DNA from: Apostichopus japonicus
Taxonomy: Eukaryota; Echinodermata; Holothuroidea; Aspidochirotida; Stichopodidae
Direction: 5' to 3'
Assembly (NCBI RefSeq): GCF_037975245.1
Contig: NC_092575.1
Span: 1,991,001 to 2,055,000 of the forward strand
DNA length: 64,000 nt
The position numbers and the translations under genes were made by a program. Below are positions 49,782-60,423 of this stretch, piece after piece (position 1 is the stretch's first letter; each line of letters starts with the position of its first letter). Under the pieces are notes generated by a model. That model searched no databases. It worked only from the letters and a program-made list of their open reading frames with translations, and was not told the origin of the DNA.

Positions 49782-52700
49782 CTGCAAAGATGAGACAAAA
49801 AGACAAAAAAAAAAATCAGAATGTTTGTTTCTTTTTTCTTAAGATTAAAAGAACTGAATTAGTTTTCTTAAGAGTTTGGGCTTTCAAAAGTCGATTAAAA
49901 GTTGACTTTCAGAGACACCTTTAATAATAGTCAGATGAAGATACGTCTCAGGACAATAATTGGTTGGAGTGGGGAGGGAAGGCACTGTTCTTATCGTAAA
50001 ATTGGAAAGTTCCACTGATACTCAATACACAACAGGACAAGCAATTTACTGCGTCAATTTTTTTTCCTTCATTGAAAGGGAGAATGGTTCCCACTTCCTT
50101 TCTCAACATCCACTGTAGGCACTACATATTAACTGGCATGGCATCCATTTCAGTCAAAATCATGTTGTTTTAGCAATGACTTCTGGCACTTGTACCACCC
50201 AGTTCTCCACCACCCCTTCCCCTTAATCGCTAGAAAATCCAAACTGCAGTGAGTCTTGGCCGGCCCACCAAAATTCCAAGCCTCCTCAAAGGATATGGTC
50301 AACAGTTAAGGTTACAGGTCATTTAAAGTCCAAAGGCAACAACATGACAAATGGCAGTTGGTACTGTATGTGACATGCAACATGGGCCACCAGACAATCC
50401 TTTTAACACTATAGGCATATAAACCTTCTAGTAATATCTATCTCATAATATAGAGAAATCTACCTCATAATATAGTTAAATCATAATATAGTTAAATCTA
50501 CCTCATAATATAGTTATATCTACCTCATAATATAGTTAAATCATAATATAGTTAAATCTACCTCATAATATAGTTATATCTACCTCATAATATACTTAAA
50601 ATCTACCTCATAATATAGTTAAATCTACCTCATAATATACTTAAATTCTACCTCATAATATGGTTAAATCTACCTCATATTATAGTTGAATCTAACCCCA
50701 TTACATAGTTAAATCTACCTCATAATATACTATAGTTTAAATTTACTTCATAATATAGTTAAATCTACCTCATAATATAGTTAAATCTACCTCATAATAT
50801 ACAGTAGTTAAATCTACCTTATAATATATTATAGTTAAATCTACCTCATAATACAGTTAAATCTACCTCATAATATAGTTTAATCTACCTCATAATATAC
50901 AGTAGTTAAATCTACCTTATAATATACTATAGTTAAATCTACCTCATAATATAGTTAAATCTACTTCATAATACAGTTAAATCTACCTCATAATACAGTT
51001 AAATCTGCCTCATAATATAGTTAAATCTACCTCATAATATAGTTATATCTACCTCATAATATAGTTAAATCTACTTCATAAATTAGTTAAATCTATATCA
51101 TAATACAGTTAAATCTACCTCATAATATAGTAAAATCTACCTCATAATATAGTTAATCTACCTCATAATATACTATGGTTTAATCTACCTCATAATATAG
51201 TTAAATCTACTTCATAATATACTATAGTTAAATCTACCTCATAATATAGTTAAATCTACTTCATAATACAGTTAAATCTACCTCATAATACAGTTAAATC
51301 TACCTCATAATACAGTTAAATCTGCCTCATAATATAGTTAAATCTACCTCATAATATAGTTATATCTACCTCATAATATAGTTAAATCTACTTCATAAAT
51401 TAGTTAAATCTACATCATAATACAGTTAAATCTACCTCATAATATAGTTAAATCTACCTCATAATATAGTTAATCTACCTCATAATATACTATAGTTTAA
51501 TCTACCTCATAATATAGTTAAATCTACTTCATAATACAGTTAAATCTACCTCATAATACAGTTAAATCTACCTCATAATACAGTTAAATCTGCCTCATAA
51601 TATAGTTAAATCTACTTCATAAATTAGTTAAATCTACATCATAATACAGTTAAATCTACCTCATAATATAGTTAAATCTACCTCATAATATTGTTAAATC
51701 TACCTCATAATATACTATATAGTTAAATCTACCTCATAATATAGTTAATCTACCTCATAATATACTATAGTTTAATCTACCTCATAATATAGTTAAATCT
51801 ACTTCATAATACAGTTAAATCTACCTCATAATACAGTTAAATCTACCTCATAATACAGTTCAATCTGCCTCATAATATAGTTAAATCTACTTCATAAATT
51901 AGTTAAATCTACATCATAATACAGTTAAATCTACCTCATAATATAGTTAAATCTACCTCATAATATACTATAGTTAAATCTACCTCATAATATAGTTAAA
52001 TCTACCTCATAATATACTATAGTTAAATCTACCTCATAAAATAGTTAAACCAGCATCATAATATATTTAAATCCACCTCATAATATAGTTAAATCTACCT
52101 AAAATATATTGAGTTTATAGCTAACTGTTGATAAAGAGGAACTAAACACTTTCTTTCACACGAACAATAGACTTACGGTACTGGGGAAGGCCAATTGTCA
52201 TCTGGAAGTAACATGTTTCCAGCTTTGCCAAGGACAGTTTCGACGTATCCAGGACAGATTGCACCGACACGCATACCCCCCTTAATGAAAGCAGAGTCCC
52301 CTTCCTGTGAAAAATATGACAAAGAAACCATCAAGTGGTTTTGAACGTTAACATTCAGTCCATGTCTTACATTTACCCCAATCACCCACCCTGATTCCCC
52401 AACCATACATACATGTATATTCCCCTAAACAACCACCTCCACCGCTCCACTTTTCCTAACATTATCTCACACAATTCAGATCAAACAGGTCAAACCGACA
52501 CTTTTTTCAATCGTAAAATAATTTTCCGCAGGAAACAGGGTGCGATATTTGTTTCCAATATTGTGGCAGTGTTGGCATAGACTACTCATTAAAAATCAAT
52601 AAGTAAGACATATGTCTGTTTATGTCAATATAGTGCCTTCTTTGACAAAAGATATATATATACATATATCACATTTAGGTTTTCCCTTGTTGACTTAATG

Positions 52701-55700: not shown

Positions 55701-58700
55701 GAACAACAGCGAGCTGTAGGGATTAAATGGAACCTGTGTATATAACACTGACGTCATGAGGCTTGTAAACATGTTGCCGATTCAACTCGGACAAAGGACA
55801 ACCAAAATCACCTTTATGAATATGTTATTAGTGTATATATATATATATATATATATAGTAAATAAATAAAGAACAACACACCAGAAAATTCCACTTCACG
55901 ACCGGTTTCGTCCTATTGGGACTCATCAGGCGAAGGTAGGAATCGAAACCCCAGGATCTTAATTGTGTCACAGACAGAAGTCCGTACCACTCGACCACAG
56001 TGATTCACTGGTGTTTGAAATGCGTATAAATTGGCTTTGTATAACTGTCATTGGGAGCTATATATATATATACTTAAGAAAATGTAAAACAATTTACAAT
56101 AACAATACCAACATGAGCATATTCTATCAGATTTGATATAGAATTGTGAAGTAGTAAAATATTAAAGGGTGAAGTATAAATACACTTACATAGTTTACTT
56201 GTACCGTAGCTTCCCATTGTGTTTCATCTTGGATAGCTGCATTGTTCACCACTATATCTAGCCGATTGTGTTTCTTGTACGTTTCCTCAAAGACATCTGA
56301 GAGAATGTAATGAAACTGCTTTCATTTATTTGGTCTACACAGTCCCTCTCAAAAAAATGAACATTTTTTAATTTGTGCAAAATATTTTGGAAAAGAAAAT
56401 CAAAAAGGTATATCTTATCTAAATATATTTGGAATAAATCTGCTATTTTCATTATATACTACAAATGCTACTATAGACTTACTCAGGAAAAGAGAATGTT
56501 CTGTAAGTCCTGAAACGCTTGTCGGCAACTTTTGGAACATTGACTTAGCAATGGAGTAACACATAAGTTCCAACCGTGGCCTTGAAAACTTTCAGATAAT
56601 TAATCTTTTGGGCACATTTATTGTTAAAATTTGATGTTGTGCTGATCATAAAGTTAAACAAAATATAGTACAGTCAGTAGAAAGCCAACATATCGTAGCT
56701 TTGAGCCAATACTATATTCAAACGTAGGATTAAACATGGAGTGGACAGAGAAACTTCTCCAGTTTCAAGGTGAAACTTGCGTCTACCAAAATTCAGTAGA
56801 AATGAGCTGGTCGAGTGCATTTTGCTGTCCGATGGGGTCGCATGCCAGAATGATAAAACAATCTCAAAAAACGATCCATATCAAAGTTGTATTTACCATG
56901 ACGGAGTGTACCAAAAGATAGTTTTGGTCTTGAAAGACACTTCAAGCCTTACCTGCCAGTTTATCTCCATAGGCTATATCACACCACATGAAGCCCACTC
57001 TATCTTTGCCATACTTTTCAGCTAGCTCTTCTGCCAATGTTCCACCTAGTTTCTTGTCGATGTCGATGATCGACACCCACTAATTGAAACAAAAATTATA
57101 AAGCTGTAGAGAATCTTTGCAAAATATGGTATTCAAATATTCCAGTCTGAGGATGGAACTTATAATAATAATAATATTTGCTTTTTATATAGCGCTTTAT
57201 ACCAGCGATAGGTCTCAAAGTGCTTTACAGATGTTATATTACCCCTGGACAATGATAACCTGTCCCAGAGACAATCCCTCCAGTCGGCAGCAGTTATATA
57301 CTGCACCCAATGACAAGTTACCTCACAGGTACCCATTTAACCCCGATGCCTTTGCCAATTGACCACCACGCTCTCACTTATCTGGTATCGAGAAATCAAT
57401 AAACTGTTCAATCAATCAAACAATCAGAAAATATTTATATAGCACCAATATCAATGACAGTTGTTCAAAGGCGCTAAAAGACAGTTACATGAAAATTAAT
57501 TGCAATACACTGGTTCAAACAGATCAAATTTTATGCAGTTTCTTGAATATATCAACAACCTGAACATTCTTGGTGTGGTTTGGAAGTGTGTTCCATTGTT
57601 TAGGACCAAACCATTGAAAATGACTGATTTGTAAATGACACTCTGTGAGGTTTGGGTGTGCACAATAAAATGAGGCAGTGAAGATGTAGATGTTCTGAGC
57701 TATCTGCATGATGGTTGTAGCTGTTCGTTCGAGATGAAATATGGCGAATTGTTTATGGTAAGCTTTATACACAAGAGGAAGTTCTCTGAACATGATACGC
57801 TATTGCATGGGGAGCCAGTGTATGCGTGATGGTTGAACATGATACGCTGTTGTATGGGGAGCCAGTGTATACGTGATGGTTGTAGCTGAAGCAAGTCCGA
57901 GATGAAATATGGCGATTGTTTATGGTAAGCTTTATACACAATCTGGAAGTATTCTGAACATGATATGCTGTTGTATGGGGAGCCAGTGTCTGCATGATGG
58001 TTGTAAGCTGAAGTAAGTCTGAGATGAAATATGGCGATTGTTTATGGTAAGCTTTATACAGTACACAAGAAGAAGTACTCTGAATATGATATGCTGTTGT
58101 ATGGGGAGCCAGTGTATGCATGATATGGTTGTAGGTGAAGTAAGTCAGAGATGAAATATGGCATTTGTTTAGGGTAAGCTTTATACACAAGAAGAAGTAC
58201 TCTGAACATGATACGCTGTTGTATGGGGAGCCAGTGTATGCGTGATGGTTGTAGCTGAAGTAAGTCTGAGATGTAAGATGGCGATTGTTTGTGGTAAGCT
58301 TTATACACAAGAAGAAGTACTCTGAACATGATATTCTGTTGTATGAGGAGCCAGTGTATGCATGATATGGTTGTAGGTGAAGTAAGTCTGAGATGAAATA
58401 TGGCAATTGTTTATGGTAAGCTTTATACACAAGAAGAAGTACTTTGAACATGATACGCTGTTGTATGGGGAGCCAGTGTATGCGTGATGGTTGTAGCTGA
58501 AGTAAGTCTGAGATGTAAGATGGCATTTGTTTATGGTAAGCTTTATACACAAGAAGAAGTACTCTGAACATGATACGCTGTTGTATGGGGAGCCAGTGTA
58601 TGCGTGATGGTTGTAGGTGAAGTAAGTCCGAGATGTAAGATGGCGATTGTTTATGATAACTAGAGTGATTTCCTACCAATTTTCTTCAATCGTTTATGAT

Positions 58701-60423
58701 AATTAGAGTGATTTCCTACCAATTTTCTTGATAACAGTTCAGTCAGTGGGTTGTGTCTGTTCACATTTGCTCAGCTTGGATTTCTTAATTATGTCACTGA
58801 ATGGAAAGATAACAGTTATAAGTACTGCAACAATATATGCTAGAATGTGAAATACAGTAATAGTCACACATATTCAAACATCACTATTGGGCCATTCTCG
58901 GTCACGAAAAATGGGATATTTGCACTTTACCACTAAGTAACTACTTTTAGGTAAAGAAAGTTGGGTTAATTCGATTGTAGTACTGAAGTATGCACTAGGG
59001 GAATCTTTTACAAAACCATATAGCTTCTAGCTCAAATCAGAGCATTCATGTGCTGGCAGAGGTCATATAAATGTCGGTCACATGTGTGACATGAAATAAA
59101 ACTGGCTTTTTTGCACAAAAAATCATTGGCAAATTCCTGTTTCTAACAGGACTGGATAACCCTAATTTCTCATGTTTCTACCTTAATGTGTTTCCATTCT
59201 AACAAGACATTTCACCTAAATATATCAATTCTAATAATTAGCATAATACTACATTTATAAGCTAACGGTCACGTGTGTGACATTGTTGGGTCACGTATGT
59301 GACATTCTGAATTTTCATTCCATAGATGCAATTTTTGCAGTGCAAATGTTGACACTAGTAATGACCACAGAACAGCACTGATGCTGATCAAATTCCATAG
59401 GAATTACTTTAAAATAGTTTTACTGCCATAGTTTTGTATTTGGAGGGTCACGTGTGTGACATTGTTGGGTCATGTGTGTGACATTCTGCATTTTCATGGA
59501 TGCTGCAATTTCATTGGATGAAGCTTTCCACATTTGCACATAACACTGTTGTCATGCCATACACACATGACATAACAACAGTCCAAGTCCACAATGCTGC
59601 TGCAATTTCATTGGATGAAGCTTTTCTCATGTGCAAATGACACTGTTGTAATGCCACACATTCATGACATAACAACAGTCCAAGTCCACAATGCTGCTGC
59701 AATTTCATTGGATGAAGCTTTTCTCATGTGCAAATGACACTGTTGTAATGCCACACATTCATGACATAACAACAGTCCAAGTCCACAGTGCTGCTGCAAA
59801 TTTCATTGGATGAAGCTTTCCTCATTTGCATATGACACTGTTGTAATGCCATACACTCATGGCATAACAACAGTCCAAGTCCACAGTGCTACTGCAATTT
59901 CATTGGATGAAGCTTTTCTCATGTGCATATGACACTGTTGTAATGCCATACACTCATGGCATAACAACAGTCCAAGTCCACAGTGCTGCTGCAATTTCAT
60001 TGGATGAAGCTTTTCTCATTTGCATATGACACTGTTGTAATGCCACACACTCATGACATAACAACAGTCCAAGTCCACAGTGCTGCTGCAATTTAATTGG
60101 ATGAAGCTTTTCTCATGTGCATATGACACTGTTGTAATGCCACACACTCATGACATAACAACAGTCCAAGTCCACAGTGCTACTGCAATTTCATTGGATG
60201 AAGCTTTTCTCATTTGCATATGACACTGTTGTAGAAAACTTAGCAAACTTTTTGCAAGCCAACATTTTGTGATAACAATGCTGGCCTCAGTTTTGTACAG
60301 TGCATGTTTCGTGGAGATACTGGTATTTACCTTAGCACCCAGTTCCAGCAGTCTTTCTGTTAGGGATCTACCAATCCCCTGTGCAGCACCAGTTACCAAG
60401 GCAACAGTCCCTTCTACCTTCAT
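49634..60423 (-). CDS. HPGD: HPGD-like short-chain dehydrogenase (15-hydroxyprostaglandin dehydrogenase type), complete, 7 coding exons
   Basis: A cytosolic NAD(H)-dependent classical SDR; HPGD oxidises the 15-hydroxyl of prostaglandins and related lipids (family knowledge). Exons: 60331-60423, 56953-57079, 56190-56296, 55617-55713, 54532-54605, 52177-52304 and 49634-49781. They total 774 bp and 257 residues (human HPGD 266), phase-consistent throughout. Motifs: TGAAQGIG (11-18) for the dinucleotide; Asp at the end of strand 2 (IIDID), favouring NAD; NNAA (91-94) where most members have NNAG; Ser139, Tyr151 and Lys155 (YASTK) as catalytic residues; ICPGYVET (182-189). The N-terminal 18 residues are nearly those of HPGD. 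An acceptor (TTTTCAG) at 60438 implies a 5' UTR intron; a possible UTR exon ends at about 62188 (CCACG|GTAAAG). The substrate could be another alcohol. Confidence 0.92.
50434..52108. repeat. 22-bp minisatellite, about 75 copies, with higher-order repeats
   Basis: Unit TTAAATCTACCTCATAATATAG with variants (CTTCATAAT, CTGCCTC, ACAG for ATAG, inserted TACTATAG). Variant units recur in blocks: AGTTAATCTACC at 51151, 51469 and 51743; TTCATAAATTAG at 51075, 51392, 51616 and 51891. It fills most of HPGD intron 6. Confidence 0.95.
52177..52304 (-). CDS. HPGD: HPGD-like coding exon 6
   Basis: Acceptor ATTTTTCACAG, donor GTAAGT, phase 0 to 2. EGDSAFIKGGMRVGAICPGY then VETVLGKAGNMLLP, the cofactor-closing PG motif. 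The 22-bp minisatellite lies 68 bp past the donor. Confidence 0.92.
52305..54531. other. HPGD-like intron 5
   Basis: 2.2 kb. Holds a short dispersed repeat (53290-53365, GGGAGATATCACAG and GACTTGATCAAGTCT) and the inverted MITE copy (54014-54371). The rest shows nothing recognisable. Confidence 0.55.
54014..54371 (-). mobile_element. MITE, copy 2 (inverted relative to 9731-10084)
   Basis: The reverse complement matches 9731-10084 over its whole length, e.g. GTCTAGATAAAAGATAACAA and GGACATCTCAGGTCTAGAT. The right end meets TTAA (54368-54371); the left flank (GTTAGAGGG) has lost it. It ends 160 bp from HPGD exon 5. Confidence 0.8.
54532..54605 (-). CDS. HPGD: HPGD-like coding exon 5 (active-site Tyr and Lys)
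   Basis: Acceptor TTTTTTGTTAG, donor GTTAGT, phase 1 to 0. FRKAWVPVYASTKAAIISLS then RCLP. The GTTAGT donor is chosen over a GTGTTT site 10 bp upstream because only it joins the next exon in the frame carrying ICPG. Confidence 0.85.
54700..55266. repeat. TGACCT-family repeat (truncated member)
   Basis: Loose tandem blocks of about 170-200 bp with TTTGACCTCTGGTGACCTCA, GGTGGATCCA-ATAT and TTTACAAG-CTTTCA, ending ATAGGTTCCTTTTGCCTTC and AGCAAGGAA. Related at its end to 45300-45735 and to the long elements. It lies in HPGD intron 4. Confidence 0.7.
55617..55713 (-). CDS. HPGD: HPGD-like coding exon 4
   Basis: Acceptor AATCCCTACAG, donor GTAGGG, phase 0 to 1. LAVVRGIRLAKKYMSTENGG then NGGVVINTASCN; holds the catalytic Ser. 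Confidence 0.92.
55858..56055 (-). mobile_element. tRNA-derived SINE carrying a hammerhead ribozyme
   Basis: Read on the minus strand, an A box (TGGTCGAGTGG, 55987-55997) and a B box (GTTTCGATTCC, 55939-55949) with tRNA-like spacing are followed directly by a hammerhead (55885-55945) and then TTTATTTATTTAC and a TA run at 55840-55858. TA runs lie at both ends. It sits in HPGD intron 3, on the sense strand of the gene. Outer boundaries are approximate. Confidence 0.75.
55885..55945 (-). ncRNA. Type I hammerhead ribozyme with minimal stem III
   Basis: On the minus strand: CTGATGA (55923-55929), stem II GTCC/GGAC with loop CAATA, GAAA (55906-55909), a very short palindromic stem III (ACCGGT), the cleavage triplet GTC ending at 55900, then GTGAAG. 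Stem I forms between CTTCGC, just 5' of CTGATGA, and GTGAAG, just after the cleavage site (6 pairs, one G-U). It continues after an internal loop with ATTCC/GGAAT. All invariant core bases are present. Minimal stem III type I hammerheads are known from Penelope-like elements and animal retrozymes (established). Confidence 0.88.
56190..56296 (-). CDS. HPGD: HPGD-like coding exon 3
   Basis: Acceptor ATTCTCTCAG, donor GTAAGT, phase 1 to 0. VFEETYKKHNRLDIVVNNAA then IQDETQWEATVQVNY; contains the NNAG-equivalent NNAA. Confidence 0.93.
56953..57079 (-). CDS. HPGD: HPGD-like coding exon 2
   Basis: Acceptor TTTCAATTAG, donor GTAAGG, phase 0 to 1. WVSIIDIDKKLGGTLAEELA then EKYGKDRVGFMWCDIAYGDK, covering strand 2 with the NAD-selecting Asp and the CD motif after strand 3. 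Confidence 0.93.
57155..57375 (-). mobile_element. SINE (copy 2), B box region deleted
   Basis: The minus strand has an A-box-like head (TGGTCAATTGGCAAAGGCAT), then the same body as 26288-26595 (GAGGGATTGTCTC, GACAGGTTATC). It ends CTGGTATAAAGCGCTATATA and AATATTATTATTAT. The stretch carrying the B box in copy 1 is missing. In HPGD intron 1. Confidence 0.8.
57400..58660 (-). mobile_element. LINE 3' end with internally amplified 40-codon tandem repeat
   Basis: The minus-strand frames read PSYISDLL.LQPSRIHWLPIQ and QRIMFRVLLLVYKAYHKQ, the C-terminal region of CR1/L2-type reverse transcriptase proteins. They repeat about 8 times with a 120-125 bp period between about 57700 and 58650. After the last copy comes FQWFGPKQWNTLPNHTKN and VVDIFKKLHKI with a stop near 57524, the usual C-terminus. 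A 3' tail follows with GGTGCTATATAAATA and TTGATTGATTGA (57400-57470). Frameshifts interrupt several units; it is not a functional gene. In HPGD intron 1. Confidence 0.85.
58680..59450. other. HPGD-like intron 1, unique part
   Basis: Begins with a duplicated stretch of about 33 bp (AGAGTGATTTCCTACCAATT at about 58662 and 58705). It contains GTCACRYRTGTGAC palindromes at about 59077 and 59267-59303. Nothing else recognised. Confidence 0.5.
59499..60235. repeat. 97-bp tandem repeat, 8 copies, one hairpin per unit
   Basis: CAATTTCATTGGATGAAGC recurs at about 59506, 59603, 59700, 59797, 59894, 59992, 60089 and 60186. Each unit has arms ACTGTTGTAATGCCA and TGGCATAACAACAGT (with small variants) around an 8-base loop. 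It ends about 95 bp from the HPGD exon 1 donor. A minus-strand open frame running out of exon 1 into it is incidental. Confidence 0.92.
60331..60423 (-). CDS. HPGD: HPGD-like coding exon 1 (start, Rossmann glycine motif)
   Basis: MKVEGTVALVTGAAQGIGR then SLTERLLELGAK, phase 0 donor GTAAAT. Fourteen UTR bases precede the ATG after an acceptor at 60438. Confidence 0.93.

What the first reader, a model, noticed from the sequence alone, without database searches (positions are those of the whole stretch)
55885..55998. Complete hammerhead ribozyme fused behind a tRNA-type SINE head in an HPGD intron
The minus strand carries all invariant hammerhead bases: CTGATGA, a 4-bp stem II, GAAA, and a GTC cleavage site. 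Stem I has 6 pairs plus a second helix across an internal loop. Stem III is just the palindrome ACCGGT, so one copy should be weak and two copies could act as a dimer. Polymerase III-type A and B boxes sit directly upstream, so the transcript could cut itself about 100 nt downstream of the start. Hammerheads with minimal stem III are known in Penelope-like elements and animal retrozymes. The pairing with a tRNA-type SINE head in the same unit is the notable part. The ribozyme is on the sense strand of intron 3 and could also cut the pre-mRNA.
Basis: partly seen in the sequence, partly recalled or inferred. Interest (0 to 1): 0.85.

Follow-up and report, generated by a model that had tools for sequence, protein, structure and literature searches.

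The report
Self-cutting mobile element in an intron
A small jumping element with a tRNA-type promoter and a self-cutting RNA sits in an intron of an echinoderm gene (very likely a sea cucumber); it belongs to a family of hundreds of copies whose insertion scars resemble those of Penelope-like elements, which hints at the enzyme that copies it.

Summary
The hammerhead is real: Rfam type I, 40.6 bits (gathering 34, E 7e-7), cut 55900/55899. It is one 5'-truncated copy (about 55851-56052, minus) of a dispersed family with a 341-bp unit; 299 genome places match a strict core pattern, 0 the reversed pattern. A and B boxes lie just upstream and travel with the ribozyme, though this copy's B box has an extra T and no tRNA covariance match exists. 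Units also occur head to tail, so the family fits metazoan non-LTR retrozymes better than an ordinary SINE. A tRNA sequence plus hammerhead has a precedent in schistosomes.

What looks new is the junctions. 3' ends cluster about 50 and 84 nt after the cut, often at (TA)n; inverted neighbours are 19 head-to-head, 0 tail-to-tail. A Penelope-like element (PLE) of the same genome ends +52 and +84 nt after its hammerhead-like motif, also at (TA)n, with 9 head-to-head pairs, 0 tail-to-tail. Best reading: a retrozyme with a Pol III-type promoter, copied by PLE machinery. Against: no clear tail homology, another PLE family with different spacing, few TA-rich 5' flanks, no RNA data.

The parts
55851..56052 (-). 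Retrozyme copy in the window (u194 of one unit to u50 of the next, 0.6 unit, 5'-truncated); TA-rich sequence on both sides
   Evidence: Alignment to a real unit of L046: L001 1472-1673, 90% identity, converted to window coordinates; flanks read
55894..55935 (-). Type I hammerhead ribozyme, core
   Evidence: RF00163, 40.6 bits, E 7.2e-7
55899..55900 (-). Predicted cut site GTC|G
   Evidence: Position of the NUH triplet; cutting itself not tested
55888..55943 (-). Hammerhead plus outer stem I helix ATTCC/GGAAT, whose 5' strand is the end of the B box
   Evidence: Read; pair probabilities 0.82-0.98 for inner stem I and 0.98-1.0 for stem II in the predicted RNA
55901..55906 (-). Palindrome ACCGGT, minimal stem III, possible dimer contact
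   Evidence: ACCGGT in 93 of 117 distinct copies
55987..55997 (-). A box TGGTCGAGTGG
   Evidence: Exact fit to TRGYNNARNNG; exact fit within the 100 nt upstream in 76 of 117 copies
55939..55950 (-). B box GGTTTCGATTCC, one T longer than the family's GGTTCGATTCC
   Evidence: exact GGTTCGANNCC in 65 of 117 copies, both boxes exact in 50 of 117
55885..55888 (-). Run TTTT after stem I, possible Pol III terminator (T5 in 60 of 117 copies)
   Evidence: T-run tally; the only run of four or more T in the L046 unit
55714..56189 (-). HPGD intron that holds the element, between exons ...VQVNY and LAVVRG...
   Evidence: Splice signals; exon translation; HPGD match

Best explanation
The feature is one 5'-truncated copy of a non-LTR retrozyme family with a 341-bp unit. 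SHOWN from sequence: the unit carries Pol III-type A and B boxes joined to a type I hammerhead, the B box supplying the 5' strand of the outer stem I helix; units occur singly, head to tail (up to about 2.9 units) and head to head; 3' ends cluster at a few sites about 45-90 nt after the cut, often at (TA)n; a PLE of the same genome has the same junction layout. INFERRED: transcripts start at the internal Pol III-type promoter or by read-through; the ribozyme cuts, weakly alone and better as a dimer through ACCGGT; units may be circularised by a host ligase, as published for other retrozymes; a PLE protein starts reverse transcription internally about 50 or 84 nt after the cut site and can start from both DNA ends, which gives 5' truncations, tandem units and head-to-head pairs. 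The HPGD insertion is probably incidental.
For: Family. Linkage of head and hammerhead: 15 of 20 head-selected and 30 of 36 body-selected loci. Tandem: 37 of 106 loci have an alignment longer than one unit plus 30 nt. 3' ends: u48-54 in 50, u82-90 in 22, u73-79 in 10 of 126; strict re-alignment u43-52 in 41, u72-79 in 17, u80-88 in 13 of 126. 5' ends spread over the unit. Inverted neighbours 19 head-to-head, 0 tail-to-tail (two-sided binomial 4e-6). PLE family A, same genome: RVT_1 plus GIY-YIG; 3' ends at +84 (12 fetched) or +52 (8 fetched), into (TA)n; of 44 matches 28 end at query 140, 15 at 101-102, 1 runs through; 9 head-to-head, 0 tail-to-tail. Published anole PLE: internal starts at two sites, 30-40 bp optional tail, AT-rich targets, both strands extended.
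Against: No clear homology between retrozyme and PLE tails: p 0.065 and 0.075 for PLE-A, 0.14-0.63 for three others; a narrower test gave local p 0.024 and global p 0.51. PLE-B, the more abundant family by candidate count, has its end 124 nt after its motif. The PLE-A motif lacks a proper CUGANGA, and Rfam lists no hammerhead in 6 PLE loci up to E 5, so the +52/+84 count rests on a hammerhead-like anchor. Only 10 of 129 5' flanks are TA-rich, so (TA)n as a pre-existing target is not proven. A Pol III transcript ending at the T run would lack both usual 3' sites. This copy's B box is altered. No RNA, cleavage or circle data.
Confidence: 0.65

Rival explanations
1. An ordinary tRNA-derived SINE copied by a LINE: Pol III transcript, hammerhead as a passenger in the body, (TA)n as its 3' tail.
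For: A and B boxes, a simple-repeat 3' junction, hundreds of dispersed short copies. Copy L129 ends right at the T run, as a Pol III transcript would.
Against: Two or three alternative 3' ends instead of one; 0 of 126 ends at the T run (L129 was fetched later and is outside that count); copies continue upstream of the boxes and into tandem units; no tRNA covariance match. No LINE of this genome was compared.
Confidence: 0.15
2. A retrozyme whose circular RNA is copied by some other reverse transcriptase; the likeness to PLE-A is convergence on TA-rich priming sites.
For: Units of one insertion are more alike (0.917 direct, 0.923 inverted, 0.874 between loci), as expected of one circular template. 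The unit's own TATATAT at u44-50 could favour priming by itself.
Against: The second site (u83/84, CTTAT) has no long TA run, yet equals the PLE-A site +84; the head-to-head rule is shared with PLE-A. The identity test was not significant in a global version (p 0.36 and 0.80), and local duplication could also make units alike.
Confidence: 0.14
3. A hammerhead put to use by HPGD, cutting its pre-mRNA in the intron.
For: Sense strand of the intron, intact core.
Against: One of hundreds of dispersed copies, truncated, between TA-rich flanks; no conservation of this site could be examined.
Confidence: 0.04
4. Satellite DNA spread by unequal crossing-over and segmental duplication.
For: Head-to-tail arrays; duplicated blocks such as L014 and L085.
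Against: Copies on many chromosomes, clustered 3' ends with spread 5' ends, only head-to-head inversions.
Confidence: 0.02

Closest known systems
Metazoan non-LTR retrozymes (coral, mussel, axolotl; PMC7229834, abstract and parts 1-3 of 6 plus found passages read)
   Same: Type I hammerhead in 170-400 bp non-coding units of low GC, single to tandem; weak stem III with a palindromic loop like axolotl HHR_Amex1
   Different: Carries Pol III-type boxes, whereas a review says retrozymes seem to have no promoter (PMC7761336 section 9); shows PLE-like junctions, whereas that review says no motif reveals the helper; expression and circles untested here
[quoted passage not shown] the original 1998 and 2000 papers not seen)
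   Same: tRNA sequence and type I hammerhead in one repeat
   Different: Schistosome repeats hold a full tRNA-Gln (text of PMC4918200; its Fig. 7 legend says tRNA-Glu) and are scored as tRNA genes (PMC2770079); here only the boxes are recognisable; no sequence comparison was possible
Penelope-like elements (family A, L114, in this genome; anole Poseidon, PMC11167929, parts 1-2 of 4 and passages read)
   Same: Hammerhead or hammerhead-like motif followed by two alternative 3' ends, far end 83/84 nt here, +84 in family A, about 85-92 nt in anole by subtraction; AT-rich or (TA)n junctions; tandem copies; head-to-head copies in family A
   Different: PLEs encode RT and GIY-YIG; the retrozyme codes for nothing and its tail has no clear sequence homology
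tRNA-derived SINEs moved by LINEs
   Same: A/B boxes, short, dispersed
   Different: Several internal 3' ends, tandem units, only head-to-head inversions; no LINE partner identified or searched

Membership tests
Type I hammerhead ribozyme | Covariance score over the family's gathering score | tested here: met
   40.6 bits against 34
Type I hammerhead ribozyme | Self-cleavage | not testable with these tools
   Predicted fold compatible: constrained fold 2.6 kcal/mol above the minimum
Type I hammerhead ribozyme | Compensatory changes in the stems | tested here: inconclusive
   92.2% of cells paired, covariation equal to shuffles (93 of 500 at least as high), stems nearly invariant
Metazoan non-LTR retrozyme | Unit of about 170-400 bp, GC below about 45-50%, no protein coding | tested here: met
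   341 bp, GC 42%; coding not examined beyond the short unit length
Metazoan non-LTR retrozyme | Dimers to multimers in tandem | tested here: met
   37 of 106 loci hold more than one unit plus 30 nt
Metazoan non-LTR retrozyme | Target site duplications | tested here: inconclusive
   Not searched systematically; TA-rich junctions would hide them
Metazoan non-LTR retrozyme | Linear and circular RNAs in tissue | not testable with these tools
   No RNA data held
tRNA-derived SINE | Internal Pol III A and B boxes at tRNA-like spacing | tested here: met
   A at u249, B at u292; both exact in 50 of 117 copies
tRNA-derived SINE | Head recognisable as tRNA | tested here: not met
   ARAGORN 0 in the window; no tRNA match up to E 10 in L046
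tRNA-derived SINE | One fixed 3' end shared with a LINE | tested here: not met
   Several 3' end sites; sharing with a LINE not tested
PLE-type mobilisation | Two adjacent internal 3' ends after the hammerhead, 30-40 nt apart | tested here: met
   About u45-50 and u83/84, plus u76; PLE-A +52 and +84; PLE-B differs, 124 nt
PLE-type mobilisation | Initiation from both DNA ends (head-to-head copies) | tested here: met
   19 to 0; PLE-A 9 to 0
PLE-type mobilisation | AT-rich target | tested here: inconclusive
   3' flanks strongly TA-rich, 5' flanks in 10 of 129 only
PLE-type mobilisation | Tail sequence homologous to a PLE | tested here: inconclusive
   p 0.065/0.075 for PLE-A; local 0.024, global 0.51 in the narrower test
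PLE (autonomous) | RT and GIY-YIG reading frame | tested here: not met
   Unit is only 341 bp

The most novel reading that the evidence does not exclude
A Penelope-dependent SINE: a Pol III tRNA-type head fused to the hammerhead-plus-tail module that a PLE protein uses to start reverse transcription, with the promoter's B box doubling as the ribozyme's outer stem. It would be the PLE counterpart of the SINE-LINE partnership and would supply both the promoter and the helper that published accounts of metazoan retrozymes lack.
Probability: 0.42. Interest if true: 0.8.

Novelty: new variant of a known kind. Interest (0 to 1): 0.6.

Why it matters
A review states that retrozymes seem to have no promoter and that metazoan ones show no motif revealing which retrotransposon moves them (PMC7761336 section 9); PLEs or LINEs are only proposed (PMC7761336 and PMC11722881 passages). 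This family offers a candidate answer to both: Pol III-type boxes in the unit, and junctions that match a PLE of the same genome in position, flank and inversion pattern. Both claims can be tested with one RNA and one protein. It also adds a case of a tRNA-type promoter joined to a hammerhead in a phylum far from schistosomes.

Tried and rejected
Other hammerhead families: a pattern with a different stem II start gave 6 matches against 4 in the reversed control; four of the 6 end in this family's GAAACCGGTC. Covariation as proof of structure: no signal. Tail homology to PLEs: not convincing. One circular template per insertion: not significant by global identity, confounded by truncated ends; significant by local identity, but local duplication could do the same. 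PLE-B as partner: spacing differs, and the 40 matches scored of 962 candidates all span the whole query, so shorter ends could not be seen. tRNA ancestry: tRNA-like genes sharing GTGGCCGAGTGGTTAAGG have a longer A-B gap (23 matches); left open. A third junction site (u76) fits neither PLE-A class exactly. Satellite origin and an HPGD role were ranked low. Comparison with other animal species was not possible with the collections on hand.

Literature: 10 searches. 'retrozyme'+'echinoderm' gave 0 papers; 'hammerhead'+'ribozyme'+'sea cucumber' gave 1, a CRISPR review; 'hammerhead ribozyme'+'Strongylocentrotus' gave 3, listing only. The library holds only open-licence papers, so this is no proof that the family is unpublished.

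Full report
1. The observation. The minus strand at 55935-55894 holds a complete type I hammerhead: stem I CTTCGC/GTGAAG, CTGATGA, stem II GTCC/GGAC, GAAA, a minimal stem III in the palindrome ACCGGT, and GTC, with the predicted cut between 55900 and 55899. Rfam's type I model gives 40.6 bits (gathering 34, E 7.2e-7), the only match over gathering in the window. An A box lies at 55997-55987. The B box at 55950-55939 has one extra T in this copy. Neither ARAGORN (window) nor Rfam up to E 10 (L046) reports a tRNA, so the head is tRNA-like by boxes and spacing only.

2. Context. The intron (about 56189-55714, from splice signals) belongs to HPGD: four exon pieces match 15-hydroxyprostaglandin dehydrogenase best. 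Its number was not verified. The COI frame makes sense with AAA = Asn (NCBI table 9), which by recalled knowledge fits an echinoderm. A total of 671,581,487 bases in 35 contigs, with contigs of 46,036,110 and 18,203,763 bases, fits the published Apostichopus japonicus assembly (671.6 Mb, 34 scaffolds, 23 chromosomes of 18.21-46.02 Mb; PMC10344927, passages). The species is inferred, not given.

3. A family. A DNA search listed 40 places matching 121-131 of the 131 bases, 39 of them other than this copy at 89-92%, from 964 rough candidates of which 40 were scored. The Rfam model found 59 places, 50 over cut-off; each of the 37 loci that I fetched around such places holds this family's hammerhead. 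A strict core pattern matches 299 places against 0 for the reversed pattern (100 shown). I used 106 loci (L001-L086, L088-L107), chosen by whole match, ribozyme, body or head; they include some segmental duplicates. The body- and head-selected sets test linkage without choosing for the ribozyme: 30 of 36 and 15 of 20 hold head and whole hammerhead in one alignment; these 36 and 20 loci are part of the 42 and 41 matches. The five head-selected exceptions keep at least the 5' strand of stem I, four of them also part of the core.

4. Anatomy. Position u1 is the first base after the cut in a real 341-bp unit of L046. A box u249, B box u292, then the hammerhead to u341; GC 42%. The only run of four or more T is u12-16, just after the 3' strand of the outer stem I helix; T5 is kept in 60 of 117 distinct copies, T4 in 9, T6 in 3; in 33 the tally found no GGAA-T run. 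The 5' strand of that helix, ATTCC, is the end of the B box, so promoter and ribozyme share bases. The predicted fold from the A-box region to the T run contains stems I (inner) and II with pair probabilities 0.82-1.0; the hammerhead-constrained fold lies 2.6 kcal/mol above the minimum, in the window copy and in L046. ACCGGT is kept in 93 of 117 copies; a regular expression for the core is met in 82 of 117. A single A-U pair capped by a palindromic tetraloop is what PMC7229834 describes for axolotl HHR_Amex1, which cuts poorly as a monomer. Covariation is uninformative.

5. Arrangement. 37 of 106 loci hold an alignment longer than one unit plus 30 nt, up to about 2.9 units. Opposite-strand neighbours within 60 bp are 19 head-to-head and 0 tail-to-tail (two-sided binomial 4e-6). 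12 of the 19 left-hand pieces end between u35 and u87, the zone where single copies end; the others end elsewhere. Neighbouring units are more alike than units of different loci: 0.917 (21 direct pairs) and 0.923 (8 inverted pairs from 5 loci) against 0.874; the earlier global version was not significant.

6. 3' junctions. Of 126 alignments with enough flank, 50 end at u48-54, 22 at u82-90, 10 at u73-79, 5 at the cut site and 0 at the T run; the rest are scattered. Strict re-alignment gives 41 (u43-52), 17 (u72-79) and 13 (u80-88) of 126, u84 reading CTTAT|ATAT. 5' ends are spread around the unit. The next 30 nt are more than 80% TA/AT steps in 23 of 50, 12 of 22 and 7 of 55 others, against 0.14% of 30-nt pieces of the window, but only in 10 of 129 5' flanks. 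So (TA)n lies at many 3' junctions; that it was there beforehand is not proven.

7. PLEs in the same genome. 37 GIY-YIG matches led to frames of 910 and 835 aa with RVT_1 plus GIY-YIG. Family A (L114) is in tandem and head to head with outward 3' ends at (TA)n. It carries AAAGGGTTTATACCCGAAACGTC|GTG, a stem II and GAAAC-GTC without a proper CUGANGA; Rfam reports no hammerhead in six PLE loci. Counted from that GTC, the 20 fetched family-A junctions end at +84 (12) or +52 (8) and run into (TA)n; of all 44 matches 28 end at query 140, 15 at 101-102 and 1 runs through. Opposite-strand pairs within 4 kb are 9 head-to-head, 0 tail-to-tail. For the anole PLE, reverse transcription starts internally, most often 111-118 nt into the ORF, with the hammerhead cut at 26; a 30-40 bp tail is optional; AT-rich DNA is cut and both strands are extended (PMC11167929, parts 1-2 of 4 and passages). 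The retrozyme has the same layout: ends about 35 nt apart, the far one at u83/84. Its unit has 14 YTA sites, and the ends fall mainly around u45 and u83. My own estimate: two of 14 sites chosen at random would fall on these two with odds of about 1 in 91, less surprising if the TATATAT at u44-50 alone favours an end there.

8. Limits. Sequence likeness of retrozyme and PLE tails is not convincing. PLE-B, with 40 listed copies at 99-100%, ends 124 nt after its motif in L116. A Pol III transcript ending at T5 would lack both usual 3' sites, so templates would have to be read-through, multimeric or circular RNA. One copy, L129, does end at the T run and faces a family-A 3' end across a (TA)n tract. 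No LINE was compared. There is no RNA evidence.

9. Comparison. The family meets the testable features of metazoan non-LTR retrozymes except that target duplications were not resolved. The tRNA-plus-hammerhead pairing has a precedent in schistosomes (passages of PMC2770079; PMC4918200 section 10). New relative to what I read: a promoter in the unit, and junction evidence for the helper (PMC7761336 section 9). I rate it a new variant of a known kind.

Noticed in passing
window 26588 to about 26440, minus strand: A second tRNA-like element with exact A and B boxes, 54 nt from A-box start to B-box end, followed by a SINE-like body; ARAGORN calls no tRNA.
   Followed up: partly
L116 3836-4140 (G000 C22): Two further tRNA-like, SINE-like inserts with TA-rich flanks beside a PLE-B 3' end; (TA)n may be a shared landing place.
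   Followed up: no
L129 (G000 C11:4173900-4174470): A retrozyme copy ending at its T run faces a PLE-A 3' end across a (TA)n-rich tract of about 290 bp.
   Followed up: no
L035 around 599-860 (G000 C5): After a full copy, two more hammerheads without head repeat at 157-bp spacing.
   Followed up: no
window 57765-58685, minus strand: A tandem repeat of about 120 bp reads as an open frame of 306 aa with a recurring WLPIQQRIMF...LLLVYKAYHKQ motif, LINE-RT-like from recall.
   Followed up: no
window 50429-52108 and 59501-60233: Long minisatellites (22 bp x 74, 97 bp x 7.5) in or near HPGD introns.
   Followed up: no
G000 C29:14745-31219: Pieces of further COI-like sequence on a contig other than C35: a nuclear copy or unplaced mitochondrial DNA.
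   Followed up: no
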